Below are positions 6,514 through 9,427 of a stretch of 9,427 bases of DNA, one piece after another. Each line of letters starts with the position of its first letter. The stretch's first letter is position 1. Under the pieces are notes generated by a model. The model saw only the letters and a list, made by a program, of their open reading frames with translations. It had not been told where the DNA came from and made no database searches. The DNA comes from Thioalkalivibrio nitratireducens (GTDB lineage Bacteria; Pseudomonadota; Gammaproteobacteria; Ectothiorhodospirales; Ectothiorhodospiraceae), in NCBI GenBank assembly GCA_011390385.1, contig JAABSN010000127.1:1-9427 (forward strand). The letters run 5' to 3'. The translations under genes were made by a program, and so were the position numbers.

Positions 6514-6750
6514 GTGTCGGACGCGGAGCTTGCTCGCCTGCGCTGGCGGTGTCGCCGCGGCATGACGGAACTGGACCGTCTCTTGACCGGCTGGCTGGAC
6601 GCCAACGGTTCGTCGGCCGACCCCGATCGAAGAGCCGCATTTGCCCGTCTGCTGGAGGTGGAGGACGATCGTCTGTGGGCCTGGATGACCGGTCGGGCGC
6701 GGCCCGAGGACGAGCGCTTGCGTCGATTGGTCGATGAACTGCTCTGCTGA
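6514..6750 (+). CDS. sdhE: FAD assembly factor SdhE
   Basis: SdhE (YgfY/CptB, SDHAF2 homologue, PF03937) promotes covalent attachment of FAD to SdhA. The 78-residue protein contains the conserved RRGMTELD segment (14-21), in which Gly16 and Glu19 have the same numbering as in E. coli SdhE, where this motif is needed for flavinylation. The second conserved block is FARLLEVEDDRLWAWMTGRARP (43-64). The start is GTG 6514, with a GGGG run about 6 bases upstream and only 16 bases after the sdhB stop. No ATG gives a family-length protein. The end is shorter than in E. coli, lacking about ten residues after the last helix. It overlaps ygfX by 17 bases. Confidence 0.95.
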   Translation: MSDAELARLRWRCRRGMTELDRLLTGWLDANGSSADPDRRAAFARLLEVEDDRLWAWMTGRARPEDERLRRLVDELLC

Positions 6751-7111
6751 AATCCTGACGGCTCCCGGACGATTGCGAGTGCTGCTGATTTCGCTGATGA
6801 CGCTCGCCGCGCTTCTTGCGCTGGGTCTCAGCGGCCTGCCGGTCCTGATCAAGGCGGTCGCTGCCGCGGCAGTCATCGGGTTCTCGTATCGCAGTTTGCG
6901 ACGGCGCTCGTCGTACCGTATTTGGCTGCATGAGACCGAACCCGATCGGCTCGACGGTGTGTCGGGGGAGTTGACGCTCGAAGCTGCGAGCGCCTGGTAC
7001 GTTGTTCTGATGTTCAGGACGCCGGATCGGTTTCAGCGAATACTGCTCTTCGCCGATGAGTTCCGAGGTGACGGATTTCGACGGATTTGCTCGCAGCTCC
7101 GGAATCGTTGA
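6734..7111 (+). CDS. ygfX: YgfX family membrane protein (CptA-like)
   Basis: The 125-residue protein matches the YgfX/CptA family (PF07254), usually encoded directly after sdhE. It has a short N-terminal tail and two closely spaced hydrophobic helices at about 15-35 and 37-55. A basic turn SLRRRSSYRIWL follows, then a small soluble domain with GELTLEAASAWYVVL. The family-typical ending LLFADEFRGDGFRRICSQLRNR is clear. E. coli YgfX was described as a membrane toxin affecting cytoskeletal proteins, with YgfY as antitoxin. SdhE's flavinylation role makes that label doubtful, and YgfX function is not settled. ATG 6734 lies inside the sdhE 3' end, so translation is probably coupled. It is the last gene of the sdh operon as I read it. 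Confidence 0.85.
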   Translation: MNCSAEILTAPGRLRVLLISLMTLAALLALGLSGLPVLIKAVAAAAVIGFSYRSLRRRSSYRIWLHETEPDRLDGVSGELTLEAASAWYVVLMFRTPDRFQRILLFADEFRGDGFRRICSQLRNR

Positions 7112-7190: not shown

Positions 7191-7997
7191 ATGAATTCTC
7201 GTGTCGGATCCGGCGCTTCCGATGGCGCCCCGGAAAACGTCTCGCCGGGCGGGTCAGTGCTCTATCCGCTCTGGCAGTGGCTGGTTCTGATTCCGGCCTC
7301 TGCTGCGGCAACCGTGGTCGGGTGGTTCTTTACGGTCATCATCAGCCTGGCCGGCCGTCCCGATGTGGCCAATACGCAAGTGGCCGCGCGTTGGGCGCGG
7401 TTCATTGCATTTCTGACGCCGATGAAGGTCGAGGTGCGTGGCCACGAACACGTTCAGCCCGGCCAGACCTATGTGGTCGTCGCCAACCATCTCAGCCAGT
7501 TCGACATCCCGCTGATCTACGGCTACTCCGGCATGGATCTGCGCTGGGTGATCAAGGCTGAACTCGGCCGCATTCCGTTCGTCGCGCAGGGATGTCGCGC
7601 CATTGGGCACATCTTCATCGATCGGGGCGATCCGGAGCAGTCGCGACAGGCCATCAACGAGGCCGTCTCCCGGCTCTCCCCAGGGACCAGCGTCCTGTTT
7701 TTCGCCGAGGGAACGCGCAGCCGCGACGGAGAGCTGAAACCCTTCCGCAAGGGCGCGTTCCGGGTCGCCGCCGATCGTGCACTGCCGGTGCTTCCGATCA
7801 CGGTGCAGGGGACCTGGCAGATGCTTCAGCCCGGTTCGATGCGCATTCGACCGGGTCGCGCACGCCTGACGATTCACCCGCCGATCGAACCCCCGTCGGG
7901 TATTCAAAAGGATCGAGCGAGCCTGCTTGCCGAGAGGACTTGGAATGTGATCGCGGAATCGCTGAAAGCGGATGGTTCGCAGGGACGGCTCGGCTGA
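7191..7997 (+). CDS. 1-acylglycerol-3-phosphate O-acyltransferase family protein (PlsC-like)
   Basis: This 268-residue protein is a glycerolipid acyltransferase of the PlsC family (PF01553), expected to move an acyl chain onto lysophosphatidic acid or a related lysolipid at the inner membrane. The catalytic H-x4-D motif is NHLSQFD (99-105). Motif II is KAELGRIPF (122-130), motif III is EGTRSRDG (173-180) and motif IV is LPI (201-203). A hydrophobic segment at about 29-54 anchors it in the membrane, preceded by a polar tail of about 20 residues. ATG 7191 is preferred over the TTG at 7188, which would fall in the promoter discriminator; neither has a good Shine-Dalgarno. The stop overlaps the rhomboid ATG (TGATG). 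The precise acceptor is uncertain, since genomes often carry several PlsC paralogues. Confidence 0.93.
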   Translation: MNSRVGSGASDGAPENVSPGGSVLYPLWQWLVLIPASAAATVVGWFFTVIISLAGRPDVANTQVAARWARFIAFLTPMKVEVRGHEHVQPGQTYVVVANHLSQFDIPLIYGYSGMDLRWVIKAELGRIPFVAQGCRAIGHIFIDRGDPEQSRQAINEAVSRLSPGTSVLFFAEGTRSRDGELKPFRKGAFRVAADRALPVLPITVQGTWQMLQPGSMRIRPGRARLTIHPPIEPPSGIQKDRASLLAERTWNVIAESLKADGSQGRLG

Positions 7998-8683
7998 TGC
8001 TTCTCGATCATCCTGACCCGGAATACAGCAGTTCGCCACGCGCGCGCGCCAATTTCGTTCTTGCCGTCAAGCTCAGTTCCGGATTGCTGGTGCTGATCTG
8101 GTTGATCTTTGCAGTCGATCAGCTCAGCGGTGCGCAGTGGATCCGATTCGGGCTGGTCCCCCGAGAAATCGGCGGCCTGATCGGCCTGATCACAACGCCG
8201 CTGCTTCACTACAACGTGTCGCACCTGACCTCCAATACGCTTCCATTGCTGATCGGGGCGACGCTGGTGCTGTATCTGTATCCCCACTCGGCGGTGCGCG
8301 CGCTGCCGGCCATCTGGCTGGGCTCGGCTCTTCTGGCCTGGTGTTTCGCACGACCCAGCGTGCATATCGGGGCGAGCGGTCTGGTCTACGGGTTGCTGGC
8401 TTTCGTCCTGGTCTCGGGACTGATTCGACGGGAAATCCGTGCCATCGGTGCGGCGGGGGTGGTCTGGTTCCTCTATGGTTCCCTGCTGTACGGAATTCTG
8501 CCTTCCGGGCCCGGAACCAGCTGGGAACTGCATGCGTTCGGCTTCCTGATCGGGGGCGTGTCGGCATGGCGACTGCGCCAACTGGATCGGCCGCCGCTCA
8601 AGCGCTACGACTGGGAAGACGAGGAACCGGAAGCCGAGGATGAGGTCCCGCCCTGGCGAGAGCAGCCGGAGCGATGGCACTAG
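7997..8683 (+). CDS. rhomboid family intramembrane serine protease
   Basis: Rhomboids cut transmembrane substrates within the lipid bilayer using a Ser-His dyad. In this 228-residue protein the catalytic Ser is Ser127 in HIGASGLVYG (GxSG motif) and the catalytic His is His179 in ELHAFGFLIGG. The loop/TM2 signature HYNVSHLTSN (71-80) is intact, so the enzyme should be active. About six membrane helices can be traced between residues 22 and 193, the six-helix bacterial form. After them comes an acidic, proline-rich cytoplasmic tail (about 197-228) of the pattern DWEDEEPEAEDE. The ATG overlaps the acyltransferase stop. The final His codon is followed by a TAG lying within the left arm of a large inverted repeat. 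Substrate unknown. Confidence 0.93.
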   Translation: MLLDHPDPEYSSSPRARANFVLAVKLSSGLLVLIWLIFAVDQLSGAQWIRFGLVPREIGGLIGLITTPLLHYNVSHLTSNTLPLLIGATLVLYLYPHSAVRALPAIWLGSALLAWCFARPSVHIGASGLVYGLLAFVLVSGLIRREIRAIGAAGVVWFLYGSLLYGILPSGPGTSWELHAFGFLIGGVSAWRLRQLDRPPLKRYDWEDEEPEAEDEVPPWREQPERWH

Positions 8684-8866
8684 CCCGCATTATTCATGAA
8701 GCCGACTGCTGCGACACCCCCAGACCCTGCATCCGCGGCGTTTGGCTTGGTTGCGAATCCTCGACGTACTGTCAAGTACGCCTGTGGTTCGCGCGGTCGC
8801 CAAACACCCCGGCTACAGGGCCTGGCGTCGTCTCGCGACGTCGGTTCATGAATAATCCGGGCTAGT
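8679..8866. repeat. long symmetric imperfect palindrome, ERIC/MITE-like element
   Basis: The terminal 22 bases (8679-8700 and 8845-8866) are inverted copies with one mismatch, opposite positions 8688 and 8857. The midpoint of these arms coincides exactly with the midpoint of a central hairpin (8765-8780). Pairing every base with its mirror position, without any gap, gives by hand count 63 Watson-Crick pairs of 94 plus 5 G-T pairs. Paired blocks include 8740-8746 with 8799-8805, 8753-8757 with 8788-8792, and 8725-8729 with 8816-8820. CTAG occurs at both ends (8680-8683, 8862-8865) and may be a target duplication, though CTAG is self-complementary. It fills most of the 227-base gap between rhomboid and gspF and contains no transposase gene. 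Likely a non-autonomous mobile or dispersed repeat; copy number cannot be judged from one window. Confidence 0.85.
8765..8780. other. central hairpin of the palindromic element
   Basis: CGTACT (8765-8770) and AGTACG (8775-8780) form a perfect 6-base-pair stem closed by the tetraloop GTCA. This is the apex of the larger palindrome. Confidence 0.75.
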
Positions 8867-8910
8867 CGCGCCGGTCCTCGACGGGCGCGAAGCTTGCTGA
8901 AGGAACACGC

Positions 8911-9427
8911 ATGGCGGCATATGGATACCGGGCGCTGGACGCGGGACGTGAGGTCCGAGGAGTCGTGCAGGCCGATTCGGCGCGACACGCGCGTGCGCAG
9001 CTGCGCGAGCGCGGTTTGCTGCCGCTGGACGTGGCCGCCGAGAGGCGCGCGGTGGGAAGTACGGGCTTTGGCTGGGCCCGGGAACGGGCGCTGATTCTCC
9101 GACAGATGGCGGCGCTGCTGGGCGCGGGGCTGCCGCTGGACGAGGTGCTGGCACTCAGCGCCAGCCAGGTCGGCCGTGCCCGGGTCGAGCGTTCGCTCGC
9201 GACGGTCCGGGCCGGCGTGATCGAGGGTCAGTCTCTCTCGGTGGCAATGGATGCAGCTCCTGGCCTGTTTCCGGCGCTGATTCGGCGGTCGGTCGCGGCG
9301 GCCGAGCAATCGGGCGCGCTGGAGGCCGTGATCGAGCGATTGGCCACGCATGCCGAGCGCCAGCTCGCAACCATGCGAAACGTCGTGGTCGCGCTGGTCT
9401 ATCCGTTATTACTGGTCCTGATCTCGC
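8911..9427 (+). CDS. gspF: type II secretion system inner membrane protein GspF (partial, 5' part)
   Basis: GspF is the polytopic inner-membrane platform protein of the type II secretion system and works with the ATPase GspE. The visible 172 residues begin MAAYGYRALDAGREVRGVV, then ADSARHARAQLRERGLLPLDV (21-41), the classic GspF N-terminus. The first T2SSF domain (PF00482) follows, with LRQMAALLGAGLPLDEVLALSA (63-84) and the conserved AAEQSGALEAVIERLA (129-144). The first membrane helix begins at about residue 157 and is cut by the window edge. ATG 8911 has a good AAGGA (8900-8904) six bases upstream. PilC of type IV pili is related, but this N-terminus fits GspF better. No gspE precedes it; the nearest upstream gene is the rhomboid, beyond the palindrome. 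Confidence 0.92.
   Translation, partial: MAAYGYRALDAGREVRGVVQADSARHARAQLRERGLLPLDVAAERRAVGSTGFGWARERALILRQMAALLGAGLPLDEVLALSASQVGRARVERSLATVRAGVIEGQSLSVAMDAAPGLFPALIRRSVAAAEQSGALEAVIERLATHAERQLATMRNVVVALVYPLLLVLIS

What the first reader, a model, noticed from the sequence alone, without database searches (positions are those of the whole stretch)
8679..8866. Gap-free, mirror-symmetric imperfect palindrome of about 188 bp between rhomboid and gspF
The terminal inverted repeats (21 of 22 matching), the 6-bp apical stem and several internal paired blocks all share one exact centre (between 8772 and 8773). No insertion or deletion breaks register over 94 bases per arm. Point differences without indels suggest selection on a folded DNA or RNA form, or a young transposition-competent unit. 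The architecture resembles ERIC/IRU elements and MITEs, but the sequence is not one I can name.
Basis: seen in the sequence. Interest (0 to 1): 0.75.

Follow-up and report, generated by a model that had tools for sequence, protein, structure and literature searches.

The report
Widespread hairpin-shaped mobile DNA repeat
The palindrome is one copy of a small, non-coding, hairpin-shaped mobile repeat found in many copies in distantly related environmental bacteria, often sitting exactly on the stop codon of a gene; we found no published name for it and no enzyme that moves it.

Summary
Confirmed and identified. The feature is a 178-bp element (8684-8861) between two copies of CTAG (8680-8683, 8862-8865), with 17-bp terminal inverted repeats (TIR, CCCGSATTATTCATGAA) and self-pairing along its length. 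It is not unique: G041 holds a 90% identical full-length copy, G010 at least 40 matching places, and 17 of 61 genomes (G010 and 60 relatives) have matches. The TIR also marks elements in Nitrospirota, Planctomycetota, Myxococcota, Acidobacteriota and other phyla (capped), with 317 ends in one single-contig chromosome. The flanking four bases are typically YTAR, directly repeated: 15 direct against 1 inverted where the two can be told apart (69 of those 85 neither). A MITE moved by a DDE-type transposase with 4-bp duplication is the best reading. Arms differ between subfamilies but keep pairing (33 of 34 chosen elements fold with z below -3, flanks 3 of 61), and a central hairpin recurs across phyla. 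Of 68 intact insertions, 32 lie on an ORF's stop codon, as here. No ERIC-like match in E. coli, no Rfam match, no link to RAYT/TIRYT transposases. The mobilising enzyme was not found.

The parts
8680..8683 (.). Left copy of the 4-bp target duplication, CTAG; 8681-8683 is the TAG stop codon of the rhomboid gene
   Evidence: Read directly. In 145 paired elements 74 have identical flanks, 53 of them CTAG/CTAG
8684..8861 (+). The palindromic element, 178 bp; the strand is set by the central motif CCTCGACGTACTG..AGTACGCCTG
   Evidence: full-length relatives in G041 (90%) and G010 (mostly 81-84%)
8684..8700 (+). Left terminal inverted repeat CCCGCATTATTCATGAA
8845..8861 (-). Right terminal inverted repeat (reverse complement CCCGGATTATTCATGAA)
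8706..8715 (+). Left subterminal block CTGCTGCGAC, recurring in other subfamilies as CTRCTGCRAC
   Evidence: Seen by eye in elements printed
8832..8840 (+). Right subterminal block CTCGCGACG
   Evidence: Seven of nine bases invariant and one nearly so in alignment A1; also in Nitrospira and Lysobacterales elements
8759..8784 (+). Apical module CCTCGA-CGTACT-GTCA-AGTACG-CCTG: central hairpin with conserved unpaired flanks
   Evidence: Found (with mismatches) in 68 of 166 distinct elements at relative position 0.49 (sd 0.02); 3 of 3320 shuffled sequences
8862..8865 (.). Right copy of the target duplication, CTAG
7997..8683 (+). Rhomboid protease gene upstream (start approximate); its stop codon lies in the left CTAG
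   Evidence: PF01694, 50.4 bits; ORF end 8683
8911..9427 (+). gspF-like gene (type II secretion protein F), cut by the window end
   Evidence: PF00482, 76.1 bits

Best explanation
It is a non-autonomous transposon (MITE) of a large family with no name that we could find. Shown: 17-bp inverted ends, a directly repeated YTAR on both sides, no convincing gene inside, many dispersed copies of 93-100% identity in one genome, and an insertion here that five syntenic relatives lack. Inferred: a DDE-type transposase supplied in trans cuts at the TIRs and inserts the element at YTAR with a 4-base stagger. Because YTAR is Y plus TAR, an insertion there often falls on a TAG or TAA stop codon and copies it, so the gene keeps its stop. 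That harmless target, together with selection against insertions inside genes, would explain the position at 3' ends. Shown: the whole element folds as one long hairpin, the arms change between subfamilies and keep pairing, and a central hairpin is shared between phyla. Inferred: the folded form is useful to the element (transposase or host-protein recognition, or an mRNA 3' hairpin that is tolerated or mildly useful to the host).
For: TIRs, mostly with YTAR just outside, in 119 loci of a capped genome-contig scan. Flanks of 145 paired elements: 74 identical as direct repeats; among 85 with a tetranucleotide that is not its own reverse complement, 15 direct, 1 inverted, 69 neither. Copy numbers: 120 exact 12-mer sites in a Sedimenticola MAG, reversed-pattern control 0 in all 14 records; 40 places scored there (of 101 candidates), all 93-100% identical; 317 ends in G015, control 0. 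Window relatives: G041 90%, G010 mostly 81-84%, 17 of 61 genomes. Folding: 33 of 34 chosen elements z below -3 against 3 of 61 flanks; with the ends removed 27 of 33, window -3.5. Stop codons: 64 of 266 element flanks are the stop of an ORF of at least 100 aa, against 456 of 8651 other YTAR sites (21 of 266 expected for the same tetranucleotides); per element 32 of 68. Lineage specificity: 0 of 5 syntenic rhomboid-gspF loci show it.
Against: No autonomous partner was found. Of 13 exact ends that have no partner and at least 1.2 kb of inward sequence, 11 lead into an ORF of 200 aa or more; 8 of these match ordinary non-transposase families and 3 match none. None of the fetched IS1380, IS701, IS4/IS5 or Y1 loci shows the TIR on both sides of the gene within the stretch held, about 1.5 kb each way and in places cut by a contig end. 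In 71 of 145 paired elements the two flanks are not identical; the 145 include some small or doubtful pairs. No true empty site was seen: the five syntenic relatives have another gene or another spacer there. The palindrome is stronger than a plain MITE needs.
Confidence: 0.78

Rival explanations
1. A REP/BIME-like or TIRYT-linked palindrome, moved as single-stranded DNA by a Y1 (HUH) tyrosine transposase of the RAYT/TIRYT kind.
For: Whole-element hairpins in high copy; Y1_Tnp (PF01797) is present in 13 of 13 genomes carrying the TIR, against 5 of 14 controls. PMC3733652 (passages, and section 16 in full) describes TIRYT genes flanked by long TIRs, some of which form repeat families.
Against: In 61 genomes Y1 genes show no link: 8 of 17 with the element, 28 of 44 without (one search scored at most 13 candidates per genome, so some absences may be misses). 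Of 33 Y1 loci only 3 hold any element, each on one side of the gene; in one of these, L141, the contig starts 57 bases before the gene, so its other side cannot be seen. The Y1 genes in G010 and G004 have their own TIRs, starting GGGGTCA; the G010 one fits the GGGGWSAS motif of TIRYT in PMC3733652, the G004 one all but its last base. Direct 4-bp duplications are not expected of Y1 transposition (recalled).
Confidence: 0.1
2. A structured RNA or mRNA 3' hairpin kept by selection for gene regulation, for example an RNase III site or stabiliser after rhomboid.
For: Strong fold, recurring apical hairpin, paired changes, stop-codon position, retention after a nuoL-like gene in three genomes with matching flanks.
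Against: The five syntenic relatives lack it. The apical motif shows no clear orientation towards the adjoining gene: of 43 elements, 9 have a gene ending at the left flank only, 4 at the right only, 1 at both, 29 at neither. No intrinsic terminator or promoter, no Rfam match. Most paired changes are in the TIR.
Confidence: 0.1
3. An old insertion of an IS5-group element reduced to its ends, with no family of its own.
For: IS5 duplicates YTAR (PMC10359306, passages read).
Against: IS4/IS5-type DDE_Tnp_1 was found in 5 of 8 genomes, with none in G010, G005 or G041, which carry many elements; the interior is conserved among copies and palindromic.
Confidence: 0.08

Closest known systems
Bacterial MITEs in general (reviewed in PMC10969869; passages read)
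   Same: Size, TIRs, short direct repeats, no gene, mostly intergenic, transcripts that fold
   Different: Same 17-bp TIR in many phyla; pairing along the whole length; recurring apical hairpin; GC-rich arms, where the review calls MITEs typically AT-rich
Chunjie MITE of Geobacter uraniireducens (known only from review passages and the reference title; the paper itself was not held)
   Same: Small (full-length copy 235 bp), many copies, reported in an operon
   Different: Sequence, ends and duplication could not be compared here
QMITE2 of Coxiella burnetii (PMC5896051, passages read)
   Same: 150-190 bp, hairpin, mainly in 3' untranslated regions; one insert described next to a stop codon
   Different: 7-11 nt direct repeats of variable sequence; contains a GTAG REP
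ERIC/IRU
   Same: Intergenic imperfect palindrome
   Different: No match in any of 20,395 E. coli records
REP/BIME and TIRYT families (PMC3733652, passages and section 16)
   Same: Dispersed palindromes with a conserved tetranucleotide next to the hairpin
   Different: Tetranucleotide is a direct duplication on both sides, not a GTAG tag at one end; no link to Y1 genes found
IS5 and IS711 (target YTAR; PMC10359306 and PMC2266754, passages read)
   Same: Same target consensus; IS5 has YTAR as its duplication
   Different: IS711 duplicates TA only; no IS with this TIR was found

Membership tests
MITE | Terminal inverted repeats | tested here: met
   16 of 17 positions in the window element; up to 3 mismatches per end in 145 paired elements
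MITE | Target-site duplication | tested here: met
   4 bp, mostly YTAR; 15 direct against 1 inverted where distinguishable, 69 of those 85 neither
MITE | Dispersed, similar copies in one genome | tested here: met
   40 scored places at 93-100% in G004, 40 distinct places in G010 (some cut by contig ends); not testable in the window's own genome
MITE | No transposase of its own; related autonomous element with the same ends | tested here: inconclusive
   No convincing gene inside; no partner found
ERIC/IRU | Sequence similarity to ERIC copies in E. coli | tested here: not met
   No match at E up to 1 in 20,395 records
REP/BIME with RAYT or TIRYT | Y1 transposase gene flanked by the repeat | tested here: not met
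   0 of 33 Y1 loci show it on both sides in the stretch held, 3 show an element on one side; two Y1 genes have other TIRs; no co-occurrence
IS5 group | 4-bp YTAR duplication | tested here: met
   against PMC10359306
IS5 group | IS5-type transposase between the same TIRs | tested here: not met
   limited to 8 genomes
Known RNA family (Rfam 15) | Covariance model match | tested here: not met
   0 matches up to E 1 in 8400-9000
Intrinsic terminator | GC-rich hairpin followed by a T run | tested here: not met
   0 found in 8500-9100

The most novel reading that the evidence does not exclude
The folded single strand itself is the working form: a hairpin transposon superfamily shared by many phyla whose recurring apical hairpin and matched ends are read by an unknown transposase, so that transposition passes through an extruded cruciform or single strand yet leaves a 4-bp YTAR duplication, and whose taste for stop codons turns it into a portable 3'-UTR hairpin.
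Probability: 0.2. Interest if true: 0.85.

Novelty: new variant of a known kind. Interest (0 to 1): 0.62.

Why it matters
The bacterial palindromic repeats that I know of are mostly tied to one group of hosts (recalled). Here one end sequence, one target and, in many copies, one central hairpin recur from Nitrospirota to Gammaproteobacteria, at up to hundreds of ends per genome, without a known mover. This makes an open question testable: why do some small transposons stay palindromic along their whole length, and does that fold serve the element or the host? The stop-codon target also offers a simple account of how a bacterial repeat can fill operons without breaking genes.

Tried and rejected
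Whole-element blastn in plasmids and phages gave only short chance hits. The first viral scan used a wrong gap range and says nothing. IS1380 was suspected from memory of its ends; the IS1380-type loci fetched show no TIR pair around the gene. IS701 type was found in 2 of 13 genomes only. Y1/RAYT/TIRYT looked promising at 13 of 13 and was dropped. A 2.06-kb TIR pair in G003 (L217) holds no transposase that I could recognise by eye among its ORFs and looks like two separate ends; a 1.6-kb pair in G009 (L126) is two separate elements. Persicobacter plasmids carry a variant end but no linked transposase was seen. L287, the closest copy (90%), is not at the rhomboid-gspF locus: no flank similarity by blastn. 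A search for an exact empty site failed: relatives have a DUF2520-type ORF or a different spacer there. Paper searches with the TIR strings gave seven papers, unrelated by title and start of abstract.

Full report
What is there. The window has a gap-free imperfect palindrome centred between 8772 and 8773: 63 of 94 positions per arm complementary, 21 of the outer 22, next best centre in the window 44 of 94. It folds at -101.3 kcal/mol, z -9.2, and as minus-strand DNA at z -9.7. The element itself is 8684-8861. It lies between two CTAG copies, and the left one holds the TAG stop of the rhomboid gene; gspF starts at 8911. One minus-strand frame is open across it, without a Pfam match.

It has relatives. 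A 21-base pattern of CTAG plus TIR hit one IMG/VR contig, L001, with a 236-bp element of unrelated interior that folds end to end and also sits on a stop codon. Nearly all titles are of MAGs, so single labels may be wrong, and a few single ends may be chance; the list includes the named strain Dokdonella immobilis CGMCC 1.7659 and two records titled as chromosomes (CP070706, CP070843).

Copy number. Exact ATTATTCATGAA counts in 14 records ranged from 2 to 120, with 0 for the reversed pattern in every record. With up to two mismatches of the 17-mer, 83 to 183 ends were found in four genomes, control 0, and 317 ends of a variant (CCCGGATRTTTCATGAA) in G015, control 0. In the Sedimenticola MAG 40 places were scored, of 101 candidates, all 93-100% identical, which suggests recent spread.

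The window's own subfamily. Its genome is not held. G041 has a copy 90% identical over 186 bases. One search covered 10 genomes: 7 have a match, 3 (G001, G018, G021) none; G010 has 40 distinct places among those scored, the full-length ones mostly 81-84% identical, many of the rest cut by contig ends. In G010 and 60 relatives, 17 of 61 genomes have matches, two of them (G069, G084) only at the ends. An alignment of the window with 40 relatives is mostly free of gaps, apart from an insert of 24 bases in two copies and two partial ones. In several relatives the ends read differently (for example CCCGCCTTATTCACC with GGTGAATAAGGCGGG), both ends having changed together.

Duplication. In 145 paired elements, 74 have identical four-base flanks: 53 CTAG, 7 CTAA, 6 TTAA, 5 TTAG and 3 others. 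CTAG and TTAA read the same inverted, so only the rest can tell direct from inverted: of 85 such pairs, 15 are direct, 1 inverted, 69 neither. Many copies come from the same genomes, so these are not independent events, and a few pairs are small or doubtful. The direct repeats favour a 4-bp YTAR duplication over a TA duplication or an inverted tag.

Structure. I picked 34 elements, a few pairs of them from the same genome: 33 have z below -3 (median -9.8) against 3 of 61 flanks. With 19 bases cut from each end, 27 of 33 (one short element left out) stay below -3, median -6.2; the window scores -3.5, so in the window much of the excess comes from the ends. On 27 of the 41 aligned sequences (14 left out: two partial copies, L307, two with the insert and nine near-identical G010 copies) RNAalifold gave 45 pairs, 19 with changes on both sides against a shuffled mean of 10.6; 13 of the 19 are in the TIR helix and 6 of the other 28 pairs show such changes. 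Relatedness can inflate this test. The apical motif, with mismatches allowed, occurs in 68 of 166 distinct elements, centred at 0.49 of the length (sd 0.02), and in 3 of 3320 shuffled sequences; 98 of 166 lack it.

Stop codons. YTAR contains TAG or TAA. Of 266 element flanks 64 are the stop of an ORF of 100 aa or more, against 456 of 8651 other YTAR sites in the same loci (overlapping loci not merged for the control); 21 of 266 would be expected for the same tetranucleotides. Per element, 32 of 68 with YTAR on both sides and flanks of at least 420 bases. Target choice and later selection cannot be told apart here.

Locus history. In five relatives rhomboid and gspF are close neighbours; the printed intervals do not show the element. 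Four have an ORF between the two genes, of the DUF2520 type in the one tested (L350) and alike in sequence in the others, which the window and L348 lack. So the insertion is lineage-specific. Elsewhere a copy lies just after a nuoL-like gene in three genomes with matching flanks (PF00361 for L292; the name nuoL is mine).

Mover. No transposase was found between matching ends. Exact ends in L001-L120: 133; of those without a partner within about 700 bases, 33 were too near a contig end to tell and 13 had 1.2 kb or more inward, 11 with an ORF of 200 aa or more: 8 match non-transposase families and 3 match none. Transposase families in genomes carrying the TIR: IS701 type 2 of 13, IS1380 type 6 of 13 (4 over cut-off), Y1 13 of 13, IS4/IS5 type 5 of 8. 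One IS1380-type fragment in G005 (L134) lies about 50 bases outside an element end, not between ends. Y1 does not track the element in relatives, and two Y1 genes have their own ends.

Print. Paper searches listed no description of this TIR or family that I could recognise; the library lacks most subscription journals, and ISfinder was not available. Read: passages of PMC10969869, PMC2266754, PMC10359306 and PMC5896051; passages and section 16 of PMC3733652; a term search of PMC3942029 found nothing. Other papers were seen as listings only.

Verdict. A real, widespread, hairpin-shaped MITE family with YTAR duplications; the mover and the role of the fold remain open.

Noticed in passing
L056:2043-2076, L188:1501-1526, L231:203-228: 26-bp solo forms in which the two TIRs overlap on the self-palindromic TTCATGAA (imperfect in L056); they look like deletions of the whole interior between the two ends.
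   Followed up: partly
L284, L286, L074: A G010 subfamily carries an extra insert of about 24 bp with the small palindrome CCGGATCAAGTCCGG in the right arm.
   Followed up: no
L288:1476-1661, L292:1475-1660, L296:1475-1660: Copies at what looks like one shared site, after a nuoL-like gene, in three genomes; the core is kept while the outer ends have become CTCACCATGTACATG-like.
   Followed up: partly
L150:986-1913, L151:911-1915: Y1 transposase genes, perhaps of the TIRYT type, bracketed by their own inverted repeats beginning GGGGTCA.
   Followed up: partly
L134:1501-1851: A short IS1380-type transposase fragment (PF13701) in G005 lies about 50 bases outside an element end that faces away from it.
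   Followed up: no
window 8684-8910 against L345, L346, L349, L350: A DUF2520-type gene lies between rhomboid and gspF in relatives but is missing in the window.
   Followed up: partly
window 6734-7111: ORF after the sdh genes with a sub-threshold match to the CptA-like membrane toxin family PF07254 (22.6 bits, cut-off 27.3).
   Followed up: no
L185:2997-3018, L186:2999-3222: Plasmids of Persicobacter sp. JZB09 carry a variant end (TAGCCCGGATTATTCATG), in L186 with an imperfect partner (seen by eye) about 220 bp away.
   Followed up: partly
L001:801-1044: The one hit in viral contigs is a 244-bp palindrome (target copies included) on a contig whose other ORFs look in part phage-like by eye; it may be a provirus edge.
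   Followed up: no
L267, L273, L286 (left flanks): Three G010 copies share the left flank AGTATTTCCGGCGGGG(G)TACACTAG; right flanks differ between L267 and L273, so another repeat family may adjoin them.
   Followed up: no
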